DNA of 64,000 nt, from contig JBAMJV010003289.1 of the NCBI GenBank assembly GCA_037951105.1, positions 100,382 through 164,381 of the forward strand, read 5' to 3'. Source of the DNA: Echinarachnius parma (lineage: Eukaryota > Echinodermata > Echinoidea > Clypeasteroida > Echinarachniidae). This document shows, piece after piece, positions 8,344 through 54,579 of the stretch. Position 1 is the stretch's first letter; the number at the start of each line of letters is the position of its first letter. The position numbers and the translations under genes are program-made. The notes beneath the pieces are model-generated. The model saw nothing but the letters and a program-made list of their open reading frames with translations, was not told the origin of the DNA and did no database searches.

Positions 8344-8361
8344 ATGAGTTCTTCTAGCGAT
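8344..8361 (+). CDS. UBA-UBX-LRR gene, exon 1 (candidate start)
   Basis: ATG AGT TCT TCT AGC GAT then GTAAGT gives MSSSSD and a strong donor in phase 0, matching the phase-0 start of exon 2. The upstream 140 bases look like a CG-richer 5' end. It is only six codons, so another first exon within the 11 kb intron cannot be excluded. Confidence 0.5.
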
Positions 8362-20741: not shown

Positions 20742-20772
<31 letters not shown>

Positions 20773-34887: not shown

Positions 34888-34930
<43 letters not shown>

Positions 34931-34949
34931 CATTATCATTATCATTATC

Positions 34950-34990
<41 letters not shown>

Positions 34991-40900: not shown

Positions 40901-43900
40901 CCTCCTTTTTCTTCCTACACCAGCCTCCAAAAGCTGTCGATATCAAACACAAATGTGACAAGCGCAGGAATGGCATACCTAAGTGGTAAGAATGATATGT
41001 GTATTTTTTCTTGGAAAATGCTAGTTTAAACAGTAAGCACTGTTTATGTATTCATACTGTTCTGATTTAAAACGTTTTTAACGTAAAATGCTGCATAAGC
41101 CAAATTTTTTCCATTTGTATTTCCTTTTTTTCTTCAACTTATGTATTTATGGTTATTTCTGATGAATTAAGTTATTGATCATTGTCCAACTAGGACTAGG
41201 CTAACATACATTATTAGTTGCAGTGATTAATAATAATGCACAATAATTAAGTTTTAATGAAAAATAAAATTTCCATAGGAATTGTACACAAGCAATTTCT
41301 GAGATGACATCTACTTACAAAAGTCATGTGACCTCGTAAAGTATATACCTGTTCGTTGACAATTTGGATCAAAAGGTATGTGAGACTTGAAGGAAAAACC
41401 CATGAAGTGGCACATTGATACTTTACGCTTTGCAGAGATTGTGTTAAGCATTAATGGGGGTGGATTCTACCCCCTCGCCCCCACCCACACCCCTAACCCT
41501 AGGGTTAAATCATTATGAAGGTTTTGGGGCAGTTTCATGTAGTACAGGCAGCTCCAGGGTATGAAAATATGCTAGGTTTCTCAACAACTACAGTCATACC
41601 AAGAAAATCAAGAAAAGTGGCCAATACAGGGTGGCCCAGAAATAGCGGAACGGGGCACTTCTCAAAATAAAGCAACAAAATGAACATGTCCATCGGATAG
41701 GGTGTCATTTCCAATGAACAATGATACCAAGAAAAGTAATTTTGGACGTGTAGTTTTTGTTGTAGGGCGCTTTTTTGAGTGGGACCATGTCGGGTTCCTA
41801 TTTTTGTCAATTTTTACCAAGTCAGTGCCTGATAAATGAGACTTATTGCCCTACATACCATTGAACACGCGAGTATTCCGCGCACCATTGTTAGTGTGCA
41901 TTCAGCTGTGTGCCGAGCGGTGCCGAGAGAGTTGGCATAATTGGTGAATAGTATGACGGGCAGTAAGTCTCATTTATCAGACACTGACTTGGTACAAATT
42001 GACAAAAATAGGAACCTGACATGGTCTCACTCAAAGCGCCCTAAAACAAAAACTACACGTCCAAAATTACTTTTCTTGGTATCGTTGTTCATTGGAAAGG
42101 ACACCCTATCCGATGGACATGTTCATTTTGTTACTTTATTTTGGGAAGTCCCCCGTTCAGTTATTTCTGGGCCACCCTGTATAGACAAGTGAGCTCCACA
42201 GACAGGTTCAATAATACTGCTTTTCTTTGCGAGGGACACATTGTGGTGACCACTATAGACAGGTTGGCTGCTGTAGACAGGTAAAACTCAGACAGGTTTG
42301 ATTGTATTGTTCTTGTTTCCATTTCTCTAGGGCTGACAGAGCTTTATGAGCTGCATCTGGATAAGGCAGCTGTAGATGATACCGGGGCACAGGTCATTGG
42401 GCAGTTCACCAAGCTACAGGTGCTCAGTATGGCAGCCACAAAGTGAGACTTCTTCCTTCTTTCTGCTGTAATAATAATTATAATAATATTATTGCTTACC
42501 CATAGCGCATAATATTCACTAGGATTCTCTATGCATAATTAACTATGAAATCCATGAATTCATGTATCGTGAGTCTGTCATCTGATATGGGAGAAAACCG
42601 ATGTGAGCTGATAACTGTACTTGTAGATTAGCGTTAATGATTTTATTACCATGTCTATAATATAATTAGAACTACAAACTGAAGAAAGAATACATCCAGT
42701 CCTTTCCAGGACTAGCACAATCCTTTTAAGGACTGCTCAAGAAATACTACCAACAGTCCTTCTCAAGACTCGCCAGTCCTGTATATCTACACCACCATGG
42801 AAGCCAATACAAGTAGCATCATGTCTATTATTTTATGATTTTACATTTTATACTGACATTTACTGACATTTCTGACATTTACTCTTCTTTTTGCGACAGA
42901 ATCACAGACAAGTTCCTCCTCTCTGGTGCTCTGAACCGCTGCTCCAACTTGTCTCGGCTCAACCTCAGCAGAGCAGACGTCACAGACCAAGGTAAGACAA
43001 GTCTACATCTTTGGATTTCTAGTTCAAGTTCTTTTTATTCATTTCAATCATAAACAAAGACAACAACAAAGTAATAATAATAATAATAATATTCTCGATT
43101 TATATGTGACTGGCTATAGCAAAACCCTGCACAACAAAATATATATATAGTAATAATAATAATAATAATATTCTCGATTTATATGTGACTGGCTATAGCA
43201 AAACCCTGCACTTGTCGGTGAAACTCAAAATTTTGATATTAATACCACAAGAAAGGCCACATCACAAGCTTTCATTTCATGCTTTGTTCTATCAAATTGG
43301 TCAATAATTGGCGAAGATATGATTGTTTCAATTTTACAATCAGTCTTTTCCACACATTATATGAACTTACAGGGGACGTTTCCTCACCTTCAATTTACTT
43401 TTGATTATCTTCTCTACACATTAAAAAATAATTTCATGTAAATATTTCCAACGTTTGCATCATTCAAAGTCACTCGCTGTATGGGCTTATCTCATTCATC
43501 GCGCACAGGGTGGAGGCTGTCATATTTTTTGAAACCCGGATTTTTAATTGTTCGTGCTATTAAAATGTTACGTCAAACCCGAACAAACAAGCTCGGACTC
43601 TTTTTGTTAGCTCTCGCAGCTCGCATGGTTTGTGCACAACAAAAGGCAAAACGTGAGCTAACAAAAAGAGTTGTTCGGGTTTGACGTCACATTCTAGAGC
43701 AAACAGTTCCAAATCCAAGTTTCATAAACATCAATGGCAGCCTCCATGCTGTACGCGATGAATATGATTAGCCTGTACAGCGAGTGACTTTGAACGATGC
43801 TCCTTCCTTGCCAAGAGGGCCAATGTTAGACAAATGTTGTTTTAATGTGTAGAGTACTTAATCAAAAGTAAAGAGATGGTGGGGAAACTGTCCCTTTAAA

Positions 43901-46900
43901 ATTAAAATGTCAATTTCTTAAAAACATTCATTACCGACAAGTGCAGGGTTTTGCTATAGCCGGTCACATATAGTGCCTGATATGATTGAGAATCATCTCC
44001 AAGCGCTTTATAATGATATACAAGTCGTGTAAGACATGTAAGTCAAAATAGCCCAGCTTTCAGACCTAGGCGATCGTTCCTTATATACCCTGGTTAAAAA
44101 AATGCGGAAAAAATATTGACAAAATAGGGGGAAAATATCCCTTCAAAAATATATCTTTTGATTTCAGTAAAATCATTTCTATGTGAGGATAAATCATTTC
44201 ATTTCGACTGCATGACATATCCAGTTATCGCCCCACCTGGGTACCCAAACAACTTGTGCGGTGCATTACGTTATCGAATCTAGGGTCTGTGCACTTGTGA
44301 AGTCAACTTGAAAATGCATGAAACAGCATTCCATATGTGTAGTTGACTGTGTTGTTGAAATGTAATAAAGATTTAACCATTTGATAAGATTGAATGGGCA
44401 TTTGGTTTATACTTGCTGCCAATCGTGTCGTCATTTGCGAGCCCCGCTGGCATGACTGTACAGCAATGTTTTTTTATTGGACATTTTTTATGCCTCTGCA
44501 TGTTTTCGGGTTGTCCGTACGTACGTCCCGTTCTCGTGATCAAGAACCGATTGATGGATTCTCACCAAACTTGGTTCATGTATGTATCTTGGGGTGCCAA
44601 TGAACTGATTAGATTTTGGGGTCATGAGGTCAAATGTCAAAGGGCTCATTATATATGCAAAAATAGCTATTGAACGCGTTTTCTCAAGAAGTGATTTATG
44701 GATTTGCACCATACTTTATACATGTGTGTATCCTGAGGAGCCGAATAAATGATGAGATTTCGGTGTAATGAAGTCAAAGGTCAAAGGTCGCAGGGCTAAA
44801 AATATATGCTAAAATAGCTTGTAATTGCAATATCTCAAGAACCAGTAGACAAATAACCATCAAACTTCGTACCTTTTTGTATCTTGGGGAGCTTAGATTT
44901 GGGGGGTCATTATGTCAAAGCTCAAGGTCACAGCTCATATATATGCAAAAATAACTCATAATTGTGATATCAGATCTGGTAGACAGATGACTATCAAAAT
45001 TGAGTTGACAAATTAATTCAGTGCCAGTTAATTTGGGCTTGATATATAAATCGCGCAATGGCGGAGGTATCATTTTCGACTGCGCGCAGTTGAAGATCCA
45101 TCTAGTTTTTAATTGAATAATTTTTATTACATGGGGCCCAGATCTACTTTAATTTTCCAGAAAATGGGCCAGAAAACTTGTTGTTGACATATTCTATCAG
45201 GATTGAGATTTTTGAGATGATACAAATTATATGAACAAAGTAAAGATGATCATGGCATATCATGCGATTGTGGAATCACCCGTTGAGCAATAACAATAGG
45301 TGATACGCTATACGTATCACCTAAATAGTTTCACTTTTTGAGTGTGCGTAAAAGATAGAACAAAATAGTTTGCTCACTACATCAAAGTTCAGAAAATATA
45401 TACAAACTACTTTCAATTTTTGAGTGTGCGCAAAAAATAGCAATTTTTAAAAGATTTTCTACAGAAAATATTTTTGAAATAGTCCTTTTTTACAAAAAAA
45501 TATATACAAAAAAATATATATATTTCTCTCAGATGACTAGTGTAGCACCCTCTTTGACCGTGAGGACACGAAAATCTCCATTTATCTGCTTGTGACAAAA
45601 AGCAAAACGATGCACTTTGTAACATGTATGTCATTTTCACCCCCATAAATTCAGCGGTGTATACACACCAAACTCATATAATTATTTAAAATGGGGAATT
45701 ATTTTCAAGAAAAATTAACACTCTTTGAATTTAATGATGATTATGTTAAGCAAAGGACTAAGATATCTCTGCAAAAAAGCAATTTTGGATGAATTTCATT
45801 GTGCGCACTGTCAAATAAAAAATGTTCTCCTAAAATAATGATAATGTTTTTTTTTCAAGTTTGTTTTGTTCAATTTTGTTATATTAATTTATTACCATGC
45901 ACTTTTTATTTATTGCTATTGCTATTTATTTGTATATATATAGAGTTAAAGACGTTGGTCTGCTTTGGTGTAATTGAATATAGTGGTACAAACAGTTAAA
46001 TAAAACACTGCATAATCAAAGTTTTCTGTCCAAATTTTGGCCCATAAGGCTTCTTCAGGGATTTGTATGCCTCTGCAACGAAGTAGCCGGAGGCATTTTG
46101 TTTTGAGGTTGTCCGTCCATACGTCCATCTGTCCGTACGTCCAGTTCTTGTGATCTCAAGAACCAATTGACGGATTCTCACCAAACTTGGTTCATGTATG
46201 TATCTTGGGGTGCCAATGAACCGATTACATTTCGGGGTCATTTCAGGGTCAAAGGTCAAGGTCACAGGGCTCATTATTTATGCAAAAATAGCTATTGATA
46301 AGAAGTGATTAATGAATTTGCACCATACTTGGTACATGTATGTATCTTGAGTAGCTGAATATTTGATAAGATTTTGGGGTCATAAGGTCAAAGGTCACAG
46401 GGCTCAATATATGCTAAATTAGCTTGTAATAGCAAAATCTCAAGAACTTAATGTCAGATTTCTATCAAACTTGGTACCTGAATGTATCTCAGGATGCCAT
46501 TGTAGCCATCATATTTTGGGGTCATGAGGTCAAAGGTCAAGGTCACATGACTCGATATGCCAAAATAGCTTGTAATTGCAATATCTCAAGAACCAGTTCA
46601 CAAGAAACCATCAACTTGGTACCTACATGTATTTGTATCTTGGGGAGCTAATAAACTTATAAGATATTGGGGTCATTAGGTCAAAGGTCAAGGGCACAGC
46701 TCATATATAATATTTATGCAAAAATAGCTCATACTAGTGATATACATTATCAGATCTGGTGAGCAGATACTATGAAAGTTGAGTTGGGCTTGATATATAA
46801 ATCGCGCAATGGCTGAGGCATCATTTTCGACTGCGCGTAGTCGAAGATCCATCTAGTTTATCTTGACATTCAAACCAATTTTTGTTTCCATTCAGCAAAT

Positions 46901-49620
46901 AAATCCCTGAAATAGCCTCATGGGCGAAAGTTTTTAACAGAAAACTATGTTTTCGTACAGTGTCTTATTTTATTTTTTCTACCACTTTACATATATGAGC
47001 ACTTTTTGTTTGAGGGATGTCAACAAATGTTTGTGTATTGGCCTTATGAGAATGATGGAAAGATTATATGTGAGAACGTTAGTAAACAAAACAACACTGC
47101 AAGAATGAAACTTCCCAATATACAATAAACAGCTACAAAATAATAATGATTCTAAAAGATGATATAGAAACATGGTGAAGCACAGTTCTGCTTTAATTCC
47201 CCTAAGTAAATGTTCCCAATAAACAGTTAAAAATGATATACCGTAGAACACCGTCGTCAAGCACCCCTTTCGATGTCGCTTTTAAATAGCATCACCTGAG
47301 TTCACAATGCATGTAAGGGGGACATTAAATCGAGAACCAAGACTTGACAAGATGCGATGGTAATGAATATGCATGAGGAGTGATGAAGAAAATGTCAGTT
47401 TGTATTTAAAGAAAAGAACTGATTGCTGGATTATGAAGCGAATGTGTCAGAGTTTGAATGGCGCAGCGCGCATGCAGTGGAGGGATGTCCGATCCCGGTC
47501 CCACCACCCCTCCATATAGAATACTATGTTACACGTCCCCTTTCGTCCTTGCAAATACATTTTGTATTAATTGGTGTTATAACTAACAATTTAGAAAGTA
47601 CATTACATAAGACCAATTGTTACAAAGATAGATCTAAAATGCGAAACCGCCATTCCACTATCACTTGCCATCTCCCCTCCTCCTTCTGCTTCAACACCCC
47701 TCTGACAAACCGTGGGATTGTGTCTACCACTGACTATGTGAATTCTTCTGAGCTATTGTTACCATCGTTGTGTTTCCTAGGTTTATAATTATAGTCTCCA
47801 AATAAAATTAAACAAAATTAAATAGTTCGCCTTCGCAGTCATGATTTATTCTTTGTTTGCATGCAATTGGATGCAAATCTTGAGATTTGTCACAAGCAAC
47901 ATTTTAGTTTCCCTTCAAATAAGGGTTCCATGTATCATAACAAATCTTGTAAACGTAGCCAATTGACTACAATCCTTAAACAATAATTAGAAAGTGGTGG
48001 TCTATTTTGTGGTATGTTCAATGAATGTTTTCATTTGGCAGGTACATTATCATCACAGAAATGGAGAAATATTAAGTCTGGATTCTCTTTTCTTCATCCT
48101 ATAGATTTTTCCGTTGTTTTAATATTTGTTCGGGATGTTCATCAATTATCAACAAAACGAACATTGATCATCTATTGGGGTAGAAATGAGAAGTAATAGG
48201 GTTGATGTGTTAAGGGCAATGCGGAAAAACAACAATCTTAACGCTAACTAAACTCCTACCCTTGCTATACTTTGTTGGACTAAACGCAGTTTTAGTCAAG
48301 TATTGTAAGAGATACAAATGCCGGAAATCATACCATTCACATGCAAATTATATTTTTTTCAAGTCTAAAATATTTCTTTATTAACTGAAACCTTTTGTTC
48401 AACATTGACCTGTACACAAAAGCTAGCTGCTCGGGCAGGTTGACTGTGAGCCCTTTTACACCAGTGATTGCAATTGTGATTGGAATCATGTGATCACGGT
48501 GATTCTGTTGCCTTGCTTTTACACGACAAAAAAGACTTTGCGCAAACTGTGTTTACAATCGCCTTTCTGGAGACGTACCTGTCAATCAAACAAGGAGAAC
48601 ACTAGTACTACACTGCATGACTGCATTCGAAGCAAAGAGCGCCCAGTTTATCGGCGGAAGTGCATGTAAGGTCACGTAAGCTCCGCCTCCCAAATCATGT
48701 TTTGGAGGTCAAGCCCTTTACACTTCCAATTCGCAAGTTGTGATTTGAGTGAATCATGATTAGAAAACACCTCTGGACCACGGTTCGAGTTGCGCGATTC
48801 GTGATTCTAGTTTGTGTTTACACGGTCAAAAATACTGTGATTGGAGTGAAAATGACTACAATCGTGATTGCAATCACCAAAAAAGAGACGACCAAAAGCA
48901 CACTGTTATCTTTCTTGAGAATGTTGACTTAAAAGAATAAAATGTACCGTAAAACTCCGTGTATAAGGCGCACTCGTGTATAAGGCGCACCCCAAACTTT
49001 CTAAAAAAAAAAAAAAAAAAAAAAAATTTTTTTTTTTTTTTAAGAATTTTTTTTTAGAAATTTGTTTAGAAATTTTTTTTAGAAAATTTGTTGGGACACC
49101 CTGTAGTCATGTTGGAACACTTACATCGCTGGTCTAGGGCATATCAAGGGCTTAATGTCAATTGTAGCTTTCATCATATACTTTTTTCACATACAAAATA
49201 GTGGTTAGCACAAAAATTGCACACATTGAGCAATAACACTGGTGCTCATGAATATTCATATTCATATATTCATGAATATTCATAAGCACTTATAGTCATT
49301 AAATATAGTGCAATTTTCTAACTTAAATAACTTTAACTATTTAACTATTTTCAATTGTGAGCAAAATTTATAACCACTGGTTAGATAATGGCATATAATG
49401 AGTACTGCTGCTCACGAATGTATGAATATTCATTAACAGCAGTAATTTGCTCAATAAACTTGCAATTTTTACATCTGTAACCAACATTTTTATTGTGAGA
49501 AAAAAGGTATATCTTGCTGAATGCTACAACAGATAGCAAGCTCTTGTCATGCACTAGACCAGTGTTATATGCATTGAACATGACTAGAGGGTGTCCCCAA
49601 ACAAAAATTCAAACAAAAAT

Positions 49621-49666
<46 letters not shown>

Positions 49667-52600
49667 ACCTGTGTATAAGGCGCACCCCCGACTTTGAAAT
49701 TTTTTCCGACGGAAAAAAGTGCGCCTTATACACGGAGTTTTACGTAATCAAAAGATATATCCAGCAGAGGAGTTGACGACAATACACCCTTTCAGAGGTT
49801 ATGTAAAGGTAGCAAATGTATTCACACATGATCATTGTATTCAAACAAAAGGCTCAGGGCTGTTCGCTAAACTTATTCTGAATCATGTATGATCGTTGCC
49901 TGACGAACCGAATACAATGTTTATTTATACACCTGTTTTTAGTGAAAAATAATCACTACTTGGAATTCACCTCGTACGTTTGCCGTTGTTATTTCCGGTA
50001 AAGGGCATAATAGCATACATAGTGAAATGTCTTCAATAAGGTGCATTAGACATGTACATGGGCGTAGGAGTACATTTTTCTCAGGGGGGACGGGGGGGGG
50101 GGGGGGGGAGGTCTCTTACTCGAATAATTACCTTCCCATTTTCACCTGACAAGCAAAACAAAAATGGTCTTCGCCTATTTGATGCCAGTTGTTTTTGTTG
50201 AATCTGAAATCTTACCCTAAAATTACATTAATGTGCCCGAATGTATATTAGTGACTCTGCCCGAAAATGACATGAGTTTGCCCAAATATGACAAGGGCAC
50301 CATAGTTTTGCCCATTTATGACATGGATTTGCTGAAATATGACATGGTTTTGCCCAAATGTAACACGTTTTGCCAAAATGTGGGGCTTTTTGGCCGAATA
50401 TGGTCGTTTTTTAAACTCCAGGGGGGCTGCAGCCCTTTCCGCCCCCCTCCCGCCTCCTACGCCTATATGGACGGAAGGGGAACATCTCTTTATTGCCGCT
50501 ATTAAACGCAGCCACGCGTTCATAATCCTTTATCTGTTTATAGACACTACATAATCTACACAGTGATCGTCTATTTCAAATGAATGTTTTTTTCTGTGTA
50601 ACAATTAACATTGTAACACATCATTCCTTGTGCATATTCATTACCTTCGCATCTTGTCAATTCTGGGTTCTCGATTTAACGTCCCCCTTACACGCATTGT
50701 GAACTCGGGTGACGCTATTTCAAACATTGAATTGAAAGGGGTGCTTAACGACCACTGGCGTAGCGAGTTACGTAATACCTATTCAACTGGGGGGATGTAA
50801 TCCGATGAATGAATAGCTCATCCCCCCCTCCCACTTGAATGGGTATCAATGTCATGTCTACGCCCGTGTTAACGACGGTGTTCTACGTACATTCTAAATA
50901 CCCTGTATGAGTGCATCTCTTGCATTATTTCGCTGCATGTTTTTAAATTGTAATTGGGGTGACAATTTTAGAGTTCATGTTTCCTTGAAGGCTTCTAGAA
51001 ATGCCTGTTATTATGAGTTGCTGAGGCATGCTGTAATATAATCAGGTTTCGTACTTCCTTTCATCTATTACATATTTCTCTCAATTTTCTAACCACACTT
51101 CCTCATTCCATTGTGTTCCAAATGTTAAGGGGGACCACCACACAAAGAACAGCACAGTGCTATATCTTCCTGGTACCATTGTTTGATATTAAATAGATTT
51201 TCATCACTTTGCAAAGGGGTTGATTTATTCATAAACAATATAATTAATCACCGAAACGTTTAAGAGTGCTCCAATTCTAATAACCGCATACGTTTTGAGA
51301 CAATAGAAGCACGGTAGGCGTGTACGTTCTAGACAATTGACTAGTCCTCGTCTGCAGACCCATGAACAATACTAAAACTATAACATATCATTTATAAGAT
51401 ATTATTTTTGGGTTGTAGTTCCCTTTAAATCTTAGGATGTATCCCCTAATAGTCAGAATAAATATTTCAAACATCGCATATGTTTGTTGTGGAAACCTAT
51501 GCCTAAAAATGTATGGATATGTATCTATTATTACCCAGGGCTCAAAACTAGCAAGTGCCCGATGGCCCAGGGCCAGAATACTTCATATTGGGCCAGTGAA
51601 ATTTGATGAAAGTAACATTTTAGCTGTCAATCAGGCAACTGATCATGACAGAATGAGAAAATCTTGTATGCCTCCATCACTCCATGTCAACTTGTCAAGC
51701 CTCATCCTTCATTGCAGTTTTGTCCAATTGAGACAAGGAATTTTTGGAGAAAAGACAATATTTAGATATAGATTTGGATCCAGTGAATGTTTGTTTCAGG
51801 CAACCTAAACTAAAGTGAGGCAGGCAACCAGAAAAACGAAACAGTTAGTGTGGAGCCCTGTAATACCAGAAGAAGGAGAAATGGCTGCATTCAATATAAA
51901 GTTGATCCTCTACAGGTAGAGATGATTTTTTTTATTGAAGTACATTAACCCCTTTGTAACCTGGGAATAAACACTTAATTCATCTTTTTTTTGTGGCGAG
52001 TTTCAGGTGTTAGTTTGGAAGCAAACCATATTTGATTGAAGTTGTACTTTTTTTTTAAATGCAAAGGTAAACAATAGCCCGCAGCAGCTCCGGAAATCAA
52101 TAAAACGTTTCACTGCAGCTCAAGTAACAGAAACTATCACTAACCCCTTGCCTTCGGAAACCGGGTGGTCTATATATACATGTACAATGTCTATTGGGAT
52201 TTCAGAATCTCGAAGTGAACGGGTTAAGCTGTTGTACAAAGGTGTTGATATCCTCAACCCCACATAAAAGCATTCTACCTGTGGGTGCACATGCATGGTT
52301 GACTGCACATGTCTGTATCATACTTTGTATTGATGCATACTTGGTGGGAGGTTGAATAGATTGTGTATAAAAAAAAACGCTCAACAATGTGTTGGATATT
52401 ATATTGATGTCGTATCAGATACCAGTTTCATATTGCATTCATATCAATGCATCTTTCTTGTACATACTATGTATGGAAAATATGTAAGCATACTTCCTCA
52501 AACTGCAAATTCAAACTTGCACAAGTCTTGCACACCTCAACTCCATGGGGAACATACTTGCTACAAATATTGGGCTAATTTACACCCCACTGGGAACCTA

Positions 52601-54579
52601 TTTTGTACTCTTGAGAAGAAAGCAACAATGGCCCTGGCCCGGGCATCATCCATTAGTTTAGAAACAAAGGCCCAAATGCATGAAATACTGCAACCTTTGA
52701 CTGAGGGGCAATGTATATGGCTAGGCTAGGGCTGAGAAGCCTGCAATATACACAAATTGACATTAGGTATACTGGTATTTGACAGTATAACTTAAGATCT
52801 ACAAAGATTTTAACAAAGTGCAGGGCAATGTCATGACATCACAATTACCAAATGTCCATATATTGCCAGCCCTGTAACCATTCACTTGTGACATCACAAT
52901 TAGCTTTTCAAGATAAAACAGGCATTAAGATAAATGTTAATAATCATTTATTTCAAGCTATTTTGTTTATGACAAGCCCTTTCACCCCGGGGGGGGGGGG
53001 GGGGGGCACTCATGTATAATGTTAGACGGGTATGTGCCGCTTAAAAGAACCCCCTTTTCACACCCGATCGCAGCTCTAAAGATACCCAATTTTCAAAAAT
53101 TGCCGCTCCATAGACCCCAGGAATGACTTGGCTAGGTAGTTGAGTAGCCCCAAGTCCATTATTCTTCTTCTAGTTCGGCTCCATAGACCCCCGGAAAGAC
53201 TTGGCTATTTTTGTGTAGCGGCAAGTCCCGATATTCTTCTTCTAGTTCAGCTCATTGGACCACCATTTGAGCCTTTTTGAGGGTTTCCGTAGGTCTTTGG
53301 TAGCTCCAAGTCTATGTATTTTGCAGTTTTAATATGTTCCTTAGACCCCTTAACTCCCATTTCAGGGTTTTTGTAGCTCCAAAGACCCTATATTTTGTGC
53401 TTGTAGTCAGCTCTTCAGACCCCCATTTCAGAGTTCCGTGCGGCACACCCCCGTCAAAAAACCCAAACTAATGGCAGTATTTCTTTTTTTCACAGAGGCA
53501 TAACAATACAAAGTATCTGAGTAAAATGAGGGATATTAAAATGGATCTTCTTCTTTTTAAATTTAAAAAAAAAACATAAAGAGGAGTTGATCATTGGCAG
53601 TAGCCAGGGTCAACCAGATGAATACAACAAAGTGCCTTTAAGAAGGTATAACAGGTCTAATCCAGCTAATCATTCTTGGTCACTATGTATGCTACTAAGC
53701 TTTGTATACTTAGCTCTATCAACCAATATAGTCTCAGTACGAATTAAAGGGATCTAGTAACTTTGTTGCCATGTGCAAAAAGTGATGAATGGTTGATTCA
53801 ATGTGTATTGTTATGAACTGATATGTCCACTAAGTAATGTGTTAACATTTCACGTTTAATGTTTGTTATATGGCCAAGTAATGAGCAGAAAATGCAAAGT
53901 GATAATCACTAACTCATTGCACTGATTTTGTACAGGGTTATGACTATCCAGTGAATAGTGAAGCATTTTGAACACTTCAATCATACCAACAATTTTAAAG
54001 TGATTCAGGTAAAGTGTCAGATATTGCACAAAATGACATTTGAGACTTCAATCCTAACATGTATATCAATATCATTGTAAAATACAATTGAAAGATTTGT
54101 GAAAGTTTGAAAGAAAACGAACACTGTTAACCTAGTGAAAAAAACGAATATTGAGTTCATATATCATAACTAAATGAAAATTCAAAAAACTGAAACCTTT
54201 CTAATGCTTCTATTGTTAATAAGAATACAACAAGGTGTGAAAGAACTGCTAGATTTCCAAGTATGCTTGGAGGATTTGGACAATGTTACTTGATCCCTTA
54301 AAGTTTGCATACAAGTAAGTGGGTACCACATTTTACCTTTATTACTAAGCCTAAATATATATTTTTTTTACCAGTATATTATTACATTTCACTTGACTTC
54401 AATCTCTGTGTTTATCCTTTACAGGCATCTCAGCTCTGGCGCTACCGTACCTTACTCTACTCAACTTGGACTATACATGCGTCTCAGATACCTGTGCCCA
54501 AAGCCTGGTCAAGTGCCCAAGCCTCAAAGTAATAAGGACCAACAACCTGAGAAACCCACGTTTACTGGACCAAGACTAA
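8344..54579 (+). CDS. UBA-UBX-LRR protein, whole gene (21 coding exons, 1068 aa)
   Basis: Joining the 21 exons listed below gives 3207 coding bases with every intron GT/AG and every phase matching. Domains in order: UBA about residues 7-44 (MGF loop at 18-20); a charged helix about 130-190 like that of UBXN1/SAKS1; UBX about 264-347 with the p97-binding FPR at 314-316; a Gly/Glu/Asp-rich linker about 350-590; a segment about 620-685 resembling the ZYG11 N-terminal VHL-box region (TLLDLCV at 627); then LRRs to the stop. UBA domains bind ubiquitin and UBX domains bind p97/VCP, so a cytosolic adaptor bringing ubiquitinated clients to p97 is the likely role. The LRRs may select the client. Human UBXN proteins have no LRR tail. 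Gene structure is firm from exon 2 on; exon 1 is less sure. Confidence 0.8.
8536..9082 (+). mobile_element. TA-bounded MITE (547 bp) in intron 1
   Basis: The left end taccgtaggtgctggagaac and the right end gttctccagcaactacggta are inverted repeats of about 26 bp with one main mismatch. The inside is CG-rich and noncoding. An extra partial copy of the terminal motif follows the left end (gagaacccggac at about 8567). Confidence 0.75.
9083..9735 (+). other. Intron 1 sequence, no feature seen
   Basis: No exon or repeat structure recognised. The short open frame at 9247-9450 has no family resemblance. Confidence 0.4.
9741..10176 (-). repeat. 3' LTR of the gag-only element
   Basis: 436 bp, matching 13441-13876. 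On the minus strand it begins TGTTGTAATGTTGG. The open frames called inside it on both strands are duplicated identically in the other LTR and are not genes. Confidence 0.9.
10177..10189 (-). other. Candidate polypurine tract
   Basis: On the minus strand GGATGGGGAGGAA lies directly before the 3' LTR, the usual position for the plus-strand primer of an LTR element. Confidence 0.65.
10190..11241 (-). other. Noncoding 3' interior of the gag-only element
   Basis: Where pol would normally lie there is about 1 kb of AT-rich sequence with a GC-richer patch at 10430-10620. No reverse transcriptase, RNase H or integrase motif could be read in any frame. Confidence 0.6.
11242..11739 (-). CDS. Second ORF of the LTR element, acidic then strongly basic protein (165 aa)
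   Basis: Its ATG overlaps the stop of the Gag ORF as ATGA (11739-11736), so it lies in the -1 frame and could be reached by reinitiation or frameshift. Residues 1-75 are rich in Asp, Glu and Val. Residues 100-165 carry Lys/Arg clusters (KKKRRRKKPKRK at about 103-114 and KKRKKRK at 153-159) that could act as a nuclear signal or bind nucleic acid. It has no recognised family. One inference is that the basic tail replaces the zinc-knuckle nucleocapsid absent from the Gag ORF. Confidence 0.6.
   Translation of the reverse strand: MIVGGGSRCVGTSKLVDMINVDEDREVCNSIDKEVVIVNNFDKEVNIHVDEVDLEVVEIVIETNQSLEYLTQGTLCEREPSVMAEPVTAKDDGLGEGRSESPKKKRRRKKPKRKGQWEEKPKKLKERGKECPRVESPRKEKWKRREEISWGGKKRKKRKSNYYWI
11736..12755 (-). 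CDS. Gag-like protein of the LTR element (339 aa)
   Basis: Residues 25-95 fit the retrotransposon Gag pattern: W34 and F37 in WDTFFSAF, W50, then a Leu-Lys-Gly-Ala-Arg stretch (CLKGEARAVYDTL) and a final Phe before VQP. Residues about 158-212 form a heptad-rich, likely coiled-coil segment (MKVLEGHLVRM to MCTLTSVF). A Cys/His cluster (CVSHCGC) lies at about 148-154, but I see no CCHC zinc knuckle. The rest is Ser/Pro/Gly-rich. Gag would form the virus-like particle. The frame is intact, in keeping with a young insertion. Confidence 0.7.
   Translation of the reverse strand: MSSPIYSAPYVLGVHTSLANKLQKYMVFNGTGSWDTFFSAFLHDAQGRSWTPEESKRNIWWCLKGEARAVYDTLIKHNPDIEFYDLVAQMSDCFVQPNLSDGPQTPISSCNTSHQHFPFENPGNHYGERQAFMEPKPRAGLPPFEPPCVSHCGCEARMKVLEGHLVRMAARVENMFSLVECVNKLEARVDELTSSVAKMADAMCTLTSVFTRFASSSKSVPQTPIKESYGVNGLSGKMKANSPSYNVDVGHSSLPNDVGCDSPCPVDTCSSWGESPCPSYNMGCESLVEYCGSHGPFESLGRDHPTKALREGSNLSGSRSLALLRPGQVMANSMATLLT
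12756..13440 (-). other. Leader of the LTR element
   Basis: AT-rich region between the primer site and the Gag start, with no other coding signal. Confidence 0.6.
13426..13438 (-). other. Candidate tRNA primer-binding site
   Basis: On the minus strand, two bases after the LTR, TGGCGCCGCGACT starts with the TGG that pairs with a tRNA CCA end. Its complement agtcgcggcgcca looks like a tRNA 3' end. The tRNA species was not determined. Confidence 0.6.
13441..13876 (-). repeat. 5' LTR of the gag-only element
   Basis: 436 bp. It is the transcription start side of the minus-oriented element and near-identical to 9741-10176. Confidence 0.9.
13882..15752 (+). other. Intron 1 sequence, little structure
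   Basis: Mostly AT-rich. A short tandem run of ccgaattctgatacggcgtat-like units lies at about 14845-14900. No coding exon was seen. Confidence 0.4.
15753..16202 (+). mobile_element. MITE family B, full copy (450 bp)
   Basis: Ends ttaaagggtaccacca and tggtggtccccttta(a) are imperfect inverted repeats. The interior matches 26652-27080 nearly end to end, including cattggcgcactcgcaaatg and ttgatatcacaaaacggtac. Shorter or interrupted copies lie at 18599-19385 and 51125-51428. Confidence 0.8.
16331..17432 (+). mobile_element. Candidate inverted-repeat element with CG-rich core (1.1 kb)
   Basis: The left end tatatgtgaccggctctgtc is partly mirrored by gggagccggtctcatatta at the right. The first bases resemble the terminal repeat of the element at 43180-43972. 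The core (16640-17200) is CG-rich with small open frames but no transposase motif. Confidence 0.5.
17573..18463 (+). mobile_element. Foldback element with about 400-bp inverted arms (TA ends)
   Basis: The left arm (17573 to about 17990) is repeated in reverse complement in the right arm (about 18040-18463): for example cgaaaccgggtttcatggca against tgccatgaaacccggtttcg, and gagaacgagtacaatgaaat against atttcattgtactcgttctc by pairing. Only a few dozen bases separate the arms. The outer TACA/TGTA ends suit TA target duplication as in the Tc1/mariner group. There is no transposase. Confidence 0.8.
18599..19385 (-). mobile_element. MITE family B copy, interrupted by a family C element
   Basis: The left part ttaaaggggaccaccaggca to gatatcaaata matches the right end of family B in reverse. 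After the insertion at 18673-19266 the match resumes with atacccaacattttg and continues through the ggttccgta block to about 19385, where the element is truncated. Confidence 0.75.
18673..19266 (+). mobile_element. MITE family C, nested copy (594 bp)
   Basis: Ends ccgaacacaaaaagtaagta and tactttttgtgttcgg are inverted, with arms of about 60 bp. TAAA flanks both sides (18669-18672 and 19267-19270), a possible 4-bp target duplication. A second copy lies at 57406-57907. The nesting shows that family C moved after family B. Confidence 0.8.
19641..19747 (+). CDS. UBA-UBX-LRR gene, exon 2: UBA domain
   Basis: Acceptor cactccacag and donor gtgagt. It encodes TIDQLLVTLASMGF followed by a three-helix UBA pattern ending QAVEW. 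The MGF loop and the hydrophobic spacing are typical of ubiquitin-binding UBA domains near the N terminus of UBXN proteins. Confidence 0.85.
20349..20642 (+). mobile_element. hAT-like MITE (294 bp) with 8-bp target duplication
   Basis: Inverted ends gattcacaaaggaggtttgt and acaaacctcctttgtgaatc lie between direct repeats CAGTCTTT (20341-20348 and 20643-20650). An 8-bp duplication and CAGG-type ends are usual for hAT elements. It sits in the intron between the UBA exon and exon 3. Confidence 0.85.
20739..20780 (+). repeat. (TG)n followed by poly(G)
   Basis: A TG dinucleotide run passes into about 24 consecutive G residues, inside an intron. Confidence 0.9.
20925..21003 (+). CDS. UBA-UBX-LRR gene, exon 3
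   Basis: Acceptor tatatatttgtcag and donor gtatgc. It completes the UBA tail (W)LLQGG and continues into a Ser/Thr/Pro-rich spacer. Phase 2 in, phase 0 out. Confidence 0.8.
21535..21804 (+). CDS. UBA-UBX-LRR gene, exon 4: Pro-rich spacer and charged helix
   Basis: 90 codons, acceptor ttgatttgatag, donor gtacag. A Pro/Ser-rich part is followed by a Lys/Arg/Glu helix (RWEREQREELAAKFKEER), like the coiled coil before the UBX domain in UBXN1-type proteins. Confidence 0.85.
21805..22235 (+). other. Intron with G-rich run
   Basis: Contains ggggtggggg followed by a G run at about 21868-21900. No exon was seen. Confidence 0.6.
22236..22574 (+). CDS. UBA-UBX-LRR gene, exon 5: linker and start of UBX
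   Basis: 113 codons in phase 0. It begins AHTKVLQDIEDDRKGK, matching the helix that ends with VLxQIxxDR in UBXN1 relatives, then a Ser/Thr/Ala-rich linker, and ends PTICTLQ, the first UBX strand. Confidence 0.85.
22575..23534 (+). other. Intron, no feature beyond a short shared repeat
   Basis: A short block near 22605-22690 (tgtggggatttcagaatctt) resembles sequence near 52135-52225, so it is a fragment of a dispersed repeat. Nothing else was seen. Confidence 0.4.
23535..23657 (+). CDS. UBA-UBX-LRR gene, exon 6: UBX core
   Basis: 41 codons, acceptor gactggcag, donor gtgatt. It encodes IRLPSGQHLREKFSSDARLD and the following helix of a UBX (ubiquitin-like) fold. Confidence 0.9.
24106..24214 (+). 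CDS. UBA-UBX-LRR gene, exon 7: UBX end with FPR
   Basis: It starts PFPRRVF, the cis-proline FPR loop that inserts into p97/VCP in known UBX domains, and ends with LGLTPSGTLVVRAT, the typical last strand. Phase 0 in, phase 1 out. Confidence 0.9.
24611..26517 (+). mobile_element. hAT-like inverted-repeat element (1.9 kb, noncoding)
   Basis: Left caaggctcgacactcacg pairs with right gtgagtgtggagccctg. Just inside, repeated gggccagtaaaa motifs occur on both sides in opposite orientation. CATATAT flanks both ends, consistent with a 7-8 bp duplication. A 325-bp relative lies at 51536-51860. The interior (24760-26100) is AT-rich with no transposase. Confidence 0.7.
26652..27080 (+). mobile_element. 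MITE family B, second full copy (429 bp)
   Basis: Ends ttaaagggtaccact and tggtggtccccttta(a). It is colinear with 15753-16202 and lies just before exon 8. Confidence 0.8.
27199..27801 (+). CDS. UBA-UBX-LRR gene, exon 8: Gly- and acid-rich linker
   Basis: Acceptor tttcatgtag and donor gtgagg, phase 1 in and out. After a Pro/Arg/Gln-rich start, about residues 420-490 are runs of Gly with Arg and Glu, followed by an acidic stretch (MDVDEAGLGMEQGELPMEDD). Likely disordered. The long opposite-strand open frames are by-products of this composition. Confidence 0.8.
28230..28330 (+). pseudogene. Probable decayed copy of exon 9 start
   Basis: ggtcatgatcaccatgtctt and gggtgaagg align with exon 9 (ggacaccatgtttggggcgaggg), giving GGHDHHVLGEG against GRGHHVWGEG, and then hit a stop in that frame. 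The acceptor (ttttggag) is weak. Confidence 0.4.
28465..28611 (+). CDS. UBA-UBX-LRR gene, exon 9: linker
   Basis: Acceptor ttccattatgcag, donor gtaaga, phase 1 both sides. It begins GRGHHVWGEGRRMN, loosely like the SHP-type Gly motifs that also bind p97, and continues as a Glu/Ala/Arg-rich helix. Confidence 0.8.
28612..29273 (+). other. Intron, no feature seen
   Basis: AT-rich, no repeat structure recognised. Confidence 0.4.
29274..29526 (+). CDS. UBA-UBX-LRR gene, exon 10: ZYG11/VHL-box-like segment
   Basis: Acceptor gttttctatcag, donor gtgagt. The string IPTLLDLCVKCT ... VPPSLAGKMLIELKKSGHL resembles the start of ZYG11/ZER1 proteins (SLLDICL, then LP...LADRLL), which dock elongin C and CUL2. 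The BC-box core TLxxxC fits; the final hydrophobic position does not. Confidence 0.8.
29646..29905 (+). pseudogene. Two decayed tandem copies of exon 11
   Basis: Copy one (about 29656-29745) reads NLQRVLLDCCKYATNKLLQT and then meets a stop with no donor. Copy two (about 29838-29895) keeps only ATNELLQT-type sequence. Both keep the upstream ctTcag acceptor motif and flanking intron seen before exon 11. Confidence 0.75.
30079..30221 (+). CDS. UBA-UBX-LRR gene, exon 11: LRR
   Basis: Acceptor ttgcccttcag, donor gtaagt. HLQHLSLDCYKYTTNELLQT and CTLNLASCPLITDQGLLPL fit cysteine-containing-type LRRs (LxxLxLxxCxxITDxGL) as in FBXL/AMN1 proteins. Confidence 0.85.
30276..30470 (+). mobile_element. Short MITE (195 bp)
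   Basis: Inverted ends ctgggggtgtttcac and gtgaaacacccccag are a perfect 15-bp pair. Noncoding. Confidence 0.8.
30887..30961 (+). CDS. UBA-UBX-LRR gene, exon 12: LRR
   Basis: Acceptor tttgattcacag, donor gtatgt. LKKLQQLNLSNNKSLTDRVF is one LRR unit. Confidence 0.85.
30962..31595 (+). other. Intron, no feature seen
   Basis: AT-rich, no clear repeat or exon. Confidence 0.4.
31596..31745 (+). CDS. UBA-UBX-LRR gene, exon 13: two LRRs
   Basis: Acceptor actctcctatag, donor gtatgt. LPNLATLLLEGTSVTDAGIE and LSSLSLNRTGVSDLSVLYL are two consecutive repeats. Phase 1 in and out. Confidence 0.85.
31930..32150 (+). mobile_element. Candidate small inverted-repeat element, CG-rich
   Basis: gctctaccgtgg near 31930 is mirrored by ccacggtagaacagagc near 32133-32149. 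The block is markedly richer in CG than the surrounding intron. The boundaries are rough. Confidence 0.4.
32528..32568 (+). CDS. UBA-UBX-LRR gene, exon 14: LRR
   Basis: A 41-base exon between ttttttcccccctacag and gtgagt giving LPKLKNLGLEQTQ. Phase 1 in, phase 0 out. Confidence 0.8.
32902..33003 (+). repeat. Imperfect hairpin in intron
   Basis: gtggctcgacgtttcaaaca and gttgactgtc are mirrored by gacagtcaac and tgttcaaaatgtcgagcccc. It is a short inverted repeat without coding potential, possibly a MITE remnant. Confidence 0.55.
33030..33380 (+). pseudogene. Two upstream tandem copies of exon 15, one still open
   Basis: Units at about 33030-33225 and 33226-33380 repeat exon 15 plus its upstream intron (aatatgcaaacttcaccttt). 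The first reads ESVGHLSQLVFLNVAHNSLE without stop from a possible acceptor (gtaagaacccag) in the right phase. The second reads SVGHLLTIDVG with a damaged acceptor. They are decayed copies or possibly alternative LRR exons. Confidence 0.6.
33441..33615 (+). CDS. UBA-UBX-LRR gene, exon 15: LRRs
   Basis: Acceptor catcttgtag, donor gtagcc. VGHLSQLVSLNVGRNSLD and VPTLRSLNISHLGGFPGD are two repeats. Phase 0 in, phase 1 out. Confidence 0.85.
33803..34022 (+). mobile_element. MITE family D (220 bp)
   Basis: taccgtagaacaccatcgtc is mirrored by gacgatggtgttctacggta, with arms of about 59 bp including gcttttaaag. It shares its ends with the 3.6 kb long-TIR element at 47239-50889. Confidence 0.85.
34379..34450 (+). 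CDS. UBA-UBX-LRR gene, exon 16: LRR
   Basis: Acceptor ttttacaaccatag, donor gtaaat. LQLVQLTMPDRHTTTDKGLK, one repeat; phase 1 in and out. Confidence 0.8.
34810..35085 (+). repeat. TTA/TTATCA microsatellite
   Basis: Long runs of att/tta with an inner stretch of tatcat repeats (about 34905-34960). The Tyr/His-rich open frame across it is not a gene. Confidence 0.9.
35142..35223 (+). CDS. UBA-UBX-LRR gene, exon 17: LRR
   Basis: Acceptor ctgttcacttcgcag, donor gtgggt. MPLCSLDLTDYIHILDVGLH, one repeat; phase 1 in, phase 2 out. It is followed by a 5.7 kb intron of nested mobile elements. Confidence 0.85.
35590..36968 (+). repeat. 60-bp tandem satellite, about 23 units
   Basis: The unit is roughly cgttggaccaacgttggacc, aacatcggtaactcgcagtg, aaaaagacgttggacaatct. 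Because 60 is a multiple of three and stops are rare in it, long open frames appear on both strands. These are artefacts of the period. Units vary mainly at c/t and aaa/atg positions. The array continues for about 120 bp after the gypsy-like insertion (to about 38125). Confidence 0.95.
36974..37998 (+). mobile_element. Deleted Ty3/gypsy-like LTR retrotransposon inside the satellite
   Basis: CCAAC flanks both sides (36969-36973 and 37999-38003). The 3' ends of both LTR remnants share gcctacttgtattatattac. Right after the first (37168) comes TGGTGTCTGAAGTGAAAG, a typical gypsy primer site. Only an integrase tail remains; gag, protease and RT are gone. A ggcagaataatccc block is repeated at about 37740 and 37861. 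Confidence 0.75.
37280..37711 (+). pseudogene. Integrase C-terminal remnant of a gypsy-like element
   Basis: The frame reads through RYYDQGAKSLLVLKSGERVY, then WKPGVV, TPRSYHI and YRRNRHHLKK before a stop at 37711. This spacing (YYD.GAK, L..G..V, W.PG.V, .PRSY.V, .YRRNR.HL) is characteristic of the C-terminal domain of Ty3/gypsy integrases. The zinc-binding and catalytic parts are absent, so it is nonfunctional. Confidence 0.8.
38740..39250 (+). repeat. ccaacgttgg-type repeats with a large hairpin
   Basis: Two parts: ttggatgcttgttggagaca units (38820-38945), and a hairpin whose left arm (about 38973-39060, gtacgcccaaccaacg to ggaaaagc) is mirrored by about 39070-39152 (cgttgtttgggcgtac at the end). 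Confidence 0.8.
39862..40923 (+). other. Intron remainder, mostly unstructured
   Basis: A block at about 40150-40200 (ccatagaccccagccagagt) also occurs near 30507 and, less exactly, at about 29995, so it is part of a dispersed repeat. No exon before 40924. Confidence 0.4.
40924..40985 (+). CDS. UBA-UBX-LRR gene, exon 18: LRR
   Basis: Acceptor cttcctacaccag, donor gtaaga. LQKLSISNTNVTSAGMAYLS, one repeat; phase 2 in, phase 1 out. Confidence 0.85.
41625..42181 (+). mobile_element. TA-bounded foldback element with about 220-bp arms (557 bp)
   Basis: tacagggtggcccagaaata pairs with ttatttctgggccaccctgt. The arms run to about 41850 and from about 41960 (for example ccaaaattacttttcttggt against accaagaaaagtaattttgg). 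The TA-ended TIR is typical of the Tc1/mariner group. Noncoding. Confidence 0.85.
42331..42442 (+). CDS. UBA-UBX-LRR gene, exon 19: LRR
   Basis: Acceptor gtttccatttctctag, donor gtgaga. LTELYELHLDKAAVDDTGAQ and FTKLQVLSMAATK; phase 1 in, phase 2 out. Confidence 0.85.
42900..42991 (+). CDS. UBA-UBX-LRR gene, exon 20: LRR
   Basis: Acceptor ttctttttgcgacag, donor gtaaga. ITDKFLLSGALNRCSNLSRL then NLSRADVTDQG; phase 2 in, phase 1 out. An 11.4 kb intron follows. Confidence 0.85.
43071..43137 (+). repeat. Solo terminal fragment and (TAA)n duplicated beside the next element
   Basis: taataat run plus attctcgatttatatgtgac and ggctatagcaaaaccctgca occur here and again from 43152, so the left flank and TIR of the next element were duplicated in place. 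Confidence 0.75.
43180..43972 (+). mobile_element. Inverted-repeat element with nested hairpins (793 bp)
   Basis: tatatgtgactggctatagc pairs with gctatagccggtcacatata, with TIRs of about 40 bp (aaaccctgcacttgtcggt). Inside, a second pair (caaagtcactcgctgta / tacagcgagtgactttg) and a third (gtcaaacccgaacaa / ttgttcgggtttgac) form concentric hairpins. No transposase. Confidence 0.8.
44490..45105 (+). mobile_element. Helentron/HINE-like element, copy 2 (616 bp)
   Basis: Starts atgcctctgcatgttttcgg, ends with cgactgcgcgcagttg hairpin, aagatccat and ctag before T. Its inner units carry tctcaagaa and gaggtcaaa motifs like copy 1. The 5' stem-loop is shortened by a deletion. Confidence 0.75.
45106..45985 (+). 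other. Intron stretch with a short palindrome
   Basis: 45299-45325 is taggtgatacg-ctata-cgtatcaccta, a near-perfect hairpin. Two gagtgtgcg blocks (45338 and 45421) are a short direct repeat. No coding exon. Confidence 0.5.
45986..46980 (+). mobile_element. Inverted-repeat element hosting Helentron copy 3
   Basis: The left arm (cataatcaaagttttctgtc to cttcagggattt, about 46010-46065) is mirrored by aaatccctgaaatagcc to acagaaaac at about 46902-46950. Copy 3 of the Helentron-like family fills most of the space between. Confidence 0.6.
46067..46856 (+). mobile_element. Helentron/HINE-like element, copy 3 (790 bp)
   Basis: Starts atgcctctgcaacgaagtag after T, with the ccggaggcat partner arm of the 5' hairpin. 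Ends cgactgcgcgtagtcg, aagatccat, ctag before T. Several diverged units of about 110-140 bp with ctcaagaac and ggtcaaaggtca fill the centre. Confidence 0.8.
48440..48900 (+). mobile_element. Candidate MITE (about 0.45 kb)
   Basis: cagtgattgcaattgtgatt near the left is mirrored by cgtgattgcaatcacc near the right, with further inverse matches inside. The exact ends were not resolved. Confidence 0.45.
48945..49746 (+). mobile_element. MITE with gtgtataaggcgcac ends (802 bp)
   Basis: taccgtaaaactccgtgtat and atacacggagttttacgta are inverted, and gtgtataaggcgcac occurs at both ends. A/T runs at about 49003-49042 and 49626-49661 and repeated gaatattcat motifs lie inside. Noncoding. Confidence 0.85.
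50057..50466 (+). mobile_element. MITE family E (gggcgtaggag ends), copy 1
   Basis: gggcgtaggag and ctcctacgcc are inverted ends. It holds a G run (50087-50108) and degenerate units of about 24 bp (ttttgcccaaatatgacatg). A related copy lies at 60947-61350. Confidence 0.7.
50752..50868 (+). mobile_element. Small MITE (117 bp) nested in the right end of the long-TIR element
   Basis: cactggcgtag and ctacgcccgtg are inverted. TTAACGA occurs on both sides (50745-50751 and 50869-50875), and removing the insert rebuilds the host TIR. Confidence 0.75.
51125..51428 (-). mobile_element. MITE family B, diverged short copy (304 bp)
   Basis: ttaagggggaccaccacaca at the left and gttgtagttccctttaa at the right. 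The interior keeps the gcaaaggggtt and attcataaa blocks of family B. Confidence 0.65.
51536..51860 (+). mobile_element. hAT-like MITE related to 24611-26517 (325 bp)
   Basis: cagggctcaaaact at the left pairs with agtgtggagccctg at the right. It carries gatggcccagggccag near the left end, like the larger element. Flanks ttattacc and taatacca are only loosely similar. Confidence 0.6.
51900..52985 (+). other. Intron 20 sequence, no exon seen
   Basis: The 125-codon open frame at 52352-52729 has no family match that I recognise and no flanking splice logic. Confidence 0.35.
52988..53450 (+). repeat. G run followed by degenerate units of about 75 bp
   Basis: A G run (about 52988-53006) precedes repeated text such as ggctccatagaccccaggaa, gacttggct and attcttcttctagttc, seen about five times in decaying form to about 53440. 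Confidence 0.65.
54001..54155 (+). mobile_element. MITE family F, partial copy
   Basis: caggtaaagtgtcagatatt and the following text match the left part of 59945-60293; the right end is missing. Confidence 0.55.
54425..54579 (+). CDS. UBA-UBX-LRR gene, exon 21: last LRR and stop
   Basis: Acceptor tgtttatcctttacag. It reads ISALALPYLTLLNLDYTCVS through LVKCPSLKVI to ...LLDQD and a TAA at 54577. Phase 1 in. The last repeat and the short tail close the solenoid. Confidence 0.85.

What the first reader, a model, noticed from the sequence alone, without database searches (positions are those of the whole stretch)
8344..54579. UBA-UBX domains fused to a long LRR solenoid
The sequence shows 20 to 21 phase-matched exons joining a UBA domain, a UBX domain with FPR, and an LRR region of nearly 400 residues. 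UBX proteins recruit p97/VCP and UBA binds ubiquitin. The human UBXN proteins known to me carry thioredoxin-like, UAS, PUB or SEP additions but no LRRs. A combined ubiquitin reader, p97 adaptor and LRR receptor is inferred.
Basis: partly seen in the sequence, partly recalled or inferred. Interest (0 to 1): 0.75.

Follow-up and report, generated by a model that had tools for sequence, protein, structure and literature searches.

The report
Ubiquitin-ligase receptor fused to p97 adaptor
A sea-urchin-type gene makes one protein that looks able to pick a target, have it tagged for destruction, and call in the p97 machine that pulls tagged proteins apart; close relatives of this apparently unstudied protein turn up from sponges to turtles.

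Summary
A 21-exon, 1,068-aa model with consistent phases runs from ATG 8344 to the stop at 54577-54579. The fusion is real and old: 108 of 110 family rows carry UBX with LRRs. Named family rows reach from sponge, coral, molluscs and echinoderms to fish, amphibians, turtles and squamates, mostly annotated "uncharacterized" or si:ch73-173p19.1. My searches found no paper on it.

Two parts were missed. (1) The UBX-LRR linker holds two conserved SHP-like motifs (HxWGxGxxL, Derlin-1 type), a second kind of p97 contact: 196 of 212 linkers have at least one, shuffles about 2. (2) The LRR is capped by a VHL-box-like unit (TLLDLCVKC, VPPSLAGKM). A profile of it with the first LRR hits only ZYG11B and Rad7 in the PDB at E<=10, both elongin-C partners; an F-box control fails.

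Best reading: a CUL2/elongin-BC substrate receptor carrying its own UBA-UBX-SHP p97 adaptor. p97 binding is strongly implied; elongin/CUL2 binding is inferred. Vertebrate orthologues have drifted at two box residues, and fold comparison ranks an F-box LRR protein first.

The parts
8344..54579 (+). whole gene model, start codon to stop codon, 21 exons, 1,068 aa
   Evidence: comparison with Lytechinus P0001
8344..8361 (+). exon 1 (MSSSSD); the least certain exon
   Evidence: donor GATgtaagt; conserved on haplotig; 3 of 6 residues match P0001
19641..21003 (+). exons 2-3 (19641-19747, 20925-21003): UBA-like domain with MGF loop
   Evidence: M/G/F in 200/204/203 of 221 rows; UBA_7 14.5 bits, below its cut-off of 27
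21535..22574 (+). exons 4-5 (21535-21804, 22236-22574): long helix (coiled coil by inference) and a disordered stretch
   Evidence: helix 127-176 in the model of orthologue P0001
22554..24195 (+). UBX domain (aa 265-342; end of exon 5, exons 6-7), strand-1 Arg (aa 273) and FPRR loop (aa 314-317)
   Evidence: Pfam UBX 70.2 bits; Arg273 in 217, Pro315 in 216 of 221 rows
27199..27801 (+). exon 8: Gly/acid-rich linker
   Evidence: residues 323-520 of orthologue P0001 have pLDDT <50
27333..27359 (+). SHP-like box 1, HRWGQGRAV (aa 394-402)
   Evidence: H in 208, W in 208, the two G in 198 each, of 221 rows
28476..28502 (+). SHP-like box 2, HVWGEGRRM (aa 554-562), exon 9
   Evidence: W in 203, second G in 212, R in 205, L or M in 212 of 221 rows
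29360..29389 (+). BC-box-like helix, TLLDLCVKCT (aa 628-637), exon 10
   Evidence: Leu629 in 206 of 212 rows
29438..29464 (+). Cul2-box-like element, VPPSLAGKM (aa 654-662), exon 10
   Evidence: fits PhiPxxPhixxxPhi (consensus); aligns with ZYG11B Pro51
30079..54576 (+). LRR solenoid, exons 11-21 (30079-30221, 30887-30961, 31596-31745, 32528-32568, 33441-33615, 34379-34450, 35142-35223, 40924-40985, 42331-42442, 42900-42991, 54425-54576)
   Evidence: Pfam LRR models; models of orthologues P0001 and P0124

Best explanation
The gene encodes a conserved animal protein, UBA - long helix - UBX - two SHP-like boxes - VHL-like box - LRR. It most likely works as a substrate receptor of a CUL2-elongin BC ubiquitin ligase that carries its own p97/VCP adaptor. 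Proposed steps: the LRR horseshoe binds a target (target unknown; inferred); the VHL-like box docks on elongin C and CUL2-RBX1, which ubiquitylate the target (inferred from sequence); the UBA holds the growing chain (inferred from family); UBX plus SHP-like boxes on a long flexible tether bring p97 (strongly implied by family), so tagging and extraction of the target are coupled in one molecule. Shown here: gene structure, conserved domain order, motif conservation, resemblance of the box to ZYG11B and Rad7. Not shown: any binding or activity.
For: Gene model and purifying selection. Domain order found from sponge to turtle; tree of 33 chosen rows with the window in a 100/100 echinoid clade. 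UBX 70.2 bits; strand-1 Arg in 217, loop Phe/Pro in 209/216 of 221 rows. SHP-like motif in 196 of 212 UBX-to-box linkers; shuffled mean 2.05, maximum 7. Derlin-1 contacts p97 through H240, W242, F246 and R247 of its SHP box (PMC10575581, passages), the same spacing. Box plus first LRR as a profile: at E<=10 only 3 of 177,635 PDB sequences, ZYG11B twice (0.0014, 0.0031) and Rad7 of the Rad7-Elc1 complex (0.0056). Box alone: Rad7 0.0082, next unrelated 0.44. hhalign with ZYG11B 29.0, 0 of 200 shuffles as high. ZYG11B Leu18 (elongin C) and Pro51 (CUL2) (PMC13379236, passages) fall on window Leu629 and Pro655. Confident helices before the LRR in the P0124 model.
Confidence: 0.58

Rival explanations
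1. A p97 adaptor with an LRR substrate arm only. The helices before the LRR are an N-terminal cap that descends from, or merely resembles, a VHL box and does not bind elongin C; ubiquitylation is done by other ligases, as for UBXN1-type adaptors.
Against: PDB profile hits limited to elongin-C partners at E<=10 for box plus first LRR; near-canonical box in 16 chosen non-vertebrate rows (by eye: Cys in 13, Cul2 Pro in 15).
Confidence: 0.28
2. An elongin-BC receptor that uses CUL5 rather than CUL2, or elongin C without a cullin, as a Rad7-like complex.
For: Rad7 is the only related match of the box alone; Pro at the Cul2-box site in only 25 of 212 rows.
Against: PhiPxxPhixxxPhi fits the window, and its Pro is present in 15 of 16 chosen non-vertebrate rows; ZYG11B, a CUL2 receptor, is the other match.
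Confidence: 0.09
3. An SCF-type F-box LRR receptor fused to a UBA-UBX adaptor.
For: VIA-align ranks FBXL2 first, with an alignment that begins at chain residue 12 or 9, near its F-box (position recalled); some database names say F-box/LRR-like.
Against: No F-box domain model among 20 members at E<=5 (HMMER filters drop many weak matches); hhalign with the FBXL2 N-terminus 13.1, and 15 of 200 shuffles as high.
Confidence: 0.04
4. Two neighbouring genes (a UBXN1-like gene and an LRR gene) wrongly joined.
For: No RNA-seq here; long introns; three snake/turtle records have LRRs without a UBX call (P0124, P0131, P0217).
Against: Phases fit throughout; 108 of 110 family rows have UBX with LRR; short contigs with the full open frame and a transcript-style record.
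Confidence: 0.01

Closest known systems
UBXN1 / SAKS1 (human UBA-UBX p97 adaptor)
   Different: UBXN1 ends after UBX; here about 720 more residues follow with SHP-like boxes, VHL-like box and LRR.
UBXN7 (UBXD7)
   Same: UBA-UBX adaptor joined to CUL2 ligases; it docks on neddylated cullins through a UIM (PMC3349548, abstract) and is needed to recruit p97-Ufd1-Npl4 to the CMG helicase during replication termination (PMC9633789, abstract and section titles).
   Different: UBXN7 joins the ligase as a separate molecule; here adaptor and putative receptor are one chain, and no UIM was among the Pfam hits at E<=1.
ZYG11B (CRL2 receptor)
   Same: VHL box directly followed by an LRR horseshoe (PMC13379236, passages); its box aligns with this one.
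   Different: ZYG11B has armadillo repeats after the LRR (same passages); UBA, UBX and SHP are not mentioned in the passages seen.
Lrr1 (CRL2 receptor)
   Same: LRR plus VHL box; BC box with Leu322 and a semiconserved Ala326 (PMC8682755, passages).
   Different: In Lrr1 the VHL box follows the LRR, and a PH domain precedes the LRR.
Yeast Rad7 (with Elc1, yeast elongin C)
   Same: Elongin-C partner with LRR; its N-terminus matches the box profile (E 0.0082).
   Different: No UBX half (recalled); structural alignment covers the LRR only.
Derlin-1 and Ufd1 SHP boxes
   Same: Derlin-1 SHP contacts H240, W242, F246, R247 (PMC10575581, passages) fit the HxWGxGxRL spacing; two Gly and a final Leu as in Ufd1 FRAFSGSGNRL (PMC5042407, passages).
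   Different: Here two copies lie in a linker between UBX and the LRR half.
si:ch73-173p19.1 of fishes (orthologue)
   Same: Same family and domain order.
   Different: No paper found; fish copies have a drifted box.

Membership tests
UBA-UBX p97 adaptors | UBX domain | tested here: met
   Pfam UBX 70.2 bits, cut-off 21
UBA-UBX p97 adaptors | p97-contact residues of UBX (strand-1 Arg, FPR loop; recalled) | tested here: met
   Arg273 217 of 221; Phe314 209, Pro315 216; position 316 Arg 157, Lys 36
UBA-UBX p97 adaptors | N-terminal UBA | tested here: inconclusive
   UBA_7 14.5 bits, below cut-off 27; MGF loop conserved; three helices in the P0001 model; some orthologues carry UBA Pfam calls
UBA-UBX p97 adaptors | binds p97 and ubiquitin | not testable with these tools
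   no binding data
SHP-box proteins | strict consensus F-x-G-x-G-x-x-h (PMC8181520, passages) | tested here: not met
   the window motifs have W directly before the first G; hence 'SHP-like'
SHP-box proteins | Derlin-1-type variant H-x-W-G-x-G-x-R-L (residue numbers; the letters between recalled) | tested here: met
   two copies in the window, HRWGQGRAV (ends AV, not RL) and HVWGEGRRM; W.?G.G..[LMIVF] in 196 of 212 linkers, shuffles mean 2.05, 205 of 221 on the wider set; position 557 in box 2 is Pro in 185 of 221 rows, so box 2 departs from this form in most rows
VHL-box (CRL2) substrate receptors | BC box | tested here: met
   TLLDLCVKC; Leu in 206 of 212; Ala 156, Cys 19, Ser 19, Thr 12 at the next key site; Lrr1 uses Leu322 and a semiconserved Ala326 (PMC8682755, passages)
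VHL-box (CRL2) substrate receptors | Cul2 box PhiPxxPhixxxPhi (PMC5216831, passages) | tested here: inconclusive
   present in the window; Pro at that site in only 25 of 212 rows, Thr in 181
VHL-box (CRL2) substrate receptors | sequence kinship with a proven member | tested here: met
   ZYG11B E 0.0014 and 0.0031 (box plus first LRR), not listed with the box alone; hhalign E 3.7e-5; 0 of 200 shuffles
VHL-box (CRL2) substrate receptors | fold match to a proven member including the box | tested here: inconclusive
   only 50 rows shown per search, filled by LRR solenoids
VHL-box (CRL2) substrate receptors | binds elongin BC and CUL2 | not testable with these tools
   none
F-box LRR (FBXL) receptors | F-box by sequence | tested here: not met
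   no F-box domain model in 20 members at E<=5; FBXL2 N-terminus no better than shuffles, 15 of 200 as high
F-box LRR (FBXL) receptors | F-box by fold | tested here: inconclusive
   FBXL2 is the first VIA row, aligned from residue 12 and 9

The most novel reading that the evidence does not exclude
An undescribed class of animal ubiquitin ligase in which substrate receptor and p97 segregase adaptor are one polypeptide: a single subunit tags a target through CUL2-elongin BC and hands it to p97 through three tethered contacts (UBX and two SHP-like boxes). It is old (sponge to turtle) and was not seen in named bird or mammal rows, so it may have been lost from the best-studied models.
Probability: 0.5. 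Interest if true: 0.87.

Novelty: new variant of a known kind. Interest (0 to 1): 0.72.

Why it matters
CRL2 ligases and p97 already work in sequence: CRL2-Lrr1 ubiquitylates the replicative helicase, p97 takes it apart (start of abstract of PMC8682755), and UBXN7 recruits p97 (abstract of PMC9633789). Here the two steps would be covalently joined. That gives a natural test of whether p97 recruitment can be hard-wired to one ligase, a natural blueprint for induced extraction, and a substrate to look for in urchin or fish. It also suggests an animal degradation route that I did not see in named mammalian rows.

Tried and rejected
First gene model (20 exons, 1,044 aa) was incomplete; replaced. 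Searches used the 1,044-aa model; residue numbers up to aa 877 are the same in both.

Box as an F-box: considered because FBXL2 tops VIA-align; set aside on sequence. Fold searches are dominated by LRR solenoids and do not decide; ZYG11B is not in the rows shown, which is no evidence against. Pfam on 20 members gave no model for the box.

Separate genes: rejected. Exon 20 on the haplotig not found (called E19). Paralogues in the same genome and a separate UBXN1 gene: not tested (searches unanswered). Absence from birds and mammals: only that no species-named row of that kind is among the 120 of 142, 120 of 216 and 13 of 13 rows listed; candidate caps apply, and 'lgn' and some other rows bear no species.

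SHP counts are over related sequences, not independent events, and the motif was noticed by eye before it was counted. Box profiles were cut by me after seeing the alignment: A3 took 20 of the 26 slices printed, A5 21 of the 25 (aligned, not searched), A6 16 non-vertebrate slices chosen because the vertebrate box has drifted. A paper search for the motif letters returned 0 papers.

Full report
What was checked. The window lies in a 1.2-Gb assembly of 14,790 contigs, by its genes an animal. I rebuilt the gene by eye and script from splice sites, frames and domain patterns, and added one LRR exon after comparing with the Lytechinus protein. The result has 21 exons with matching phases and GT-AG introns, 1,068 aa, from 8344 to the stop codon ending at 54579.

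Is it a real coding gene? A second contig, C3506, looks like the other haplotype: aligned pieces over 250 bases are 80-99% identical, most of them above 90%. Of 21 exons 20 were found there, 3,112 nt with 51 mismatches, no indel and no stop; synonymous differences 37 in 757 sites, non-synonymous 14 in 2,315 sites, ratio 0.124.

Is the fusion conserved? The homologue search (query residues 240-1044 of the 1,044-aa model) listed 120 of 142 hits. P0001-P0110 are family members: urchins (59-60%), starfish, sea cucumbers, crinoids, acorn worms, snails, a bivalve, an octopod, a sponge, many bony fish, frogs and a snake; 108 of these 110 carry a precomputed UBX call with LRRs (P0013 and P0103 lack it). 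P0111-P0120 match by LRRs only and were left out of family counts. A snake query added lizards, turtles, salamanders, caecilians, coelacanth, sharks, rays and chimaera; three snake and turtle records of 539-554 aa have LRRs without a UBX call. A sponge query (13 hits) added corals, more molluscs and a transcript-style record; its last three hits (P0231-P0233) were left out. A tree of 33 chosen rows puts the window with three urchins (100/100), inside echinoderms and next to acorn worms; sponge and coral rows fall beside molluscs with 89/83 support, vertebrates apart; the root is a midpoint. No bird or mammal is among the species-named rows listed.

The p97 half. UBX scores 70.2 bits; Arg273 is kept in 217 and Pro315 in 216 of 221 rows. 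UBA is weak by Pfam (14.5 bits, cut-off 27) but has the MGF loop. In the linker, predicted disordered in P0001, two motifs stand out: HRWGQGRAV and HVWGEGRRM. The published SHP consensus is F-x-G-x-G-x-x-h (PMC8181520, passages); the window motifs do not meet it strictly, having W directly before the first G. They do fit Derlin-1, whose H240, W242, F246 and R247 contact the p97 N domain and where mutations at H240, Q244 and F246 disrupt binding (PMC10575581, passages; the intervening letters recalled). Ufd1 uses FRAFSGSGNRL with two strictly conserved Gly (PMC5042407, passages). In 212 sequences (the window and 211 of 221 proteins then held; P0111-P0120 left out) 196 linkers hold W.?G.G..[LMIVF] at least once and 38 at least twice; 200 shuffles give a mean of 2.05 and a maximum of 7 sequences. 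With the members added it is 205 of 221. Eight of the ten best-conserved linker columns lie in the two motifs. At box 2 the first G is Pro in 185 of 221 rows.

The ligase half. Just before the LRR lies TLLDLCVKC...VPPSLAGKML. A VHL box is a BC box plus a Cul2 box of the form PhiPxxPhixxxPhi (PMC5216831, passages). A profile of this region and the first LRR (20 rows) matched, at E<=10, only three of 177,635 PDB sequences: ZYG11B twice (0.0014, 0.0031) and Rad7 from the Rad7-Elc1 structure (0.0056). The ZYG11B match is the sum of two weak pieces, one on its VHL box and one on a later LRR. The box alone (16 non-vertebrate rows) found Rad7 (0.0082; best stretch alone 0.062), then unrelated proteins from 0.44; ZYG11B was not listed. 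hhalign put the box on the ZYG11B VHL box (E 3.7e-5, probability 71%) with a score no shuffle reached (29.0; 0 of 200), while the FBXL2 N-terminus scored within its shuffles (13.1; 15 of 200 as high). ZYG11B Leu18 contacts elongin C and Pro51 contacts CUL2 (PMC13379236, passages); by the alignments these sit on Leu629 and Pro655. ZYG11B itself is a VHL box followed by an LRR horseshoe (same passages). Lrr1 uses Leu322 and a semiconserved Ala326 in its BC box (PMC8682755, passages), so Ala at that place is known in a working box. Still, over all 212 rows the BC-box Cys is Ala in 156 and the Cul2-box Pro is Thr in 181, and by eye these are mainly the vertebrates, so function there is uncertain.

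Known or new. Searches for the zebrafish-style name and its stem, one urchin locus name and UBX-LRR terms found no paper. Broader searches listed 9 and 4 papers, none of whose titles or abstract starts describes such a protein; of these I opened only PMC8682755. Known links between UBA-UBX proteins and CUL2 are in trans (UBXN7, abstracts). The combination in one chain appears undescribed in the library searched.

How it most likely works: the LRR picks the target, the VHL-like box recruits the CUL2-elongin ligase, UBA and the UBX-SHP-SHP tether recruit ubiquitin and p97. The last step is strongly implied; the middle step rests on sequence kinship; the target is unknown.

Noticed in passing
window 35616-36973: 60-bp minisatellite, 22.5 copies, in intron 17; it creates long spurious open frames on both strands.
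   Followed up: partly
window 29649-29730, about 29804-29885, 33101-33217: Decayed duplicates of LRR exons 11 and 15 (79-90% identity) lying in introns beside the real exons.
   Followed up: partly
window 54630-54950: 128-bp tandem duplication (2.4 copies) resembling the 3' part of the last exon, just after the stop codon.
   Followed up: no
window 11242-12755 (- strand) and 37280-37708 (+ strand): By eye, retrotransposon-like pieces (gag-like open frames; an integrase-tail-like frame) inside introns. Not searched.
   Followed up: no
P0124, P0131, P0217: Snake and turtle records of 539-554 aa with LRRs but no UBX call, two of them named F-box/LRR-like: shorter isoforms or partial gene models.
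   Followed up: no
family alignment, vertebrate rows: BC-box Cys to Ala and Cul2-box Pro to Thr, by eye mainly in vertebrates, a drift little seen in 16 chosen non-vertebrate rows.
   Followed up: partly
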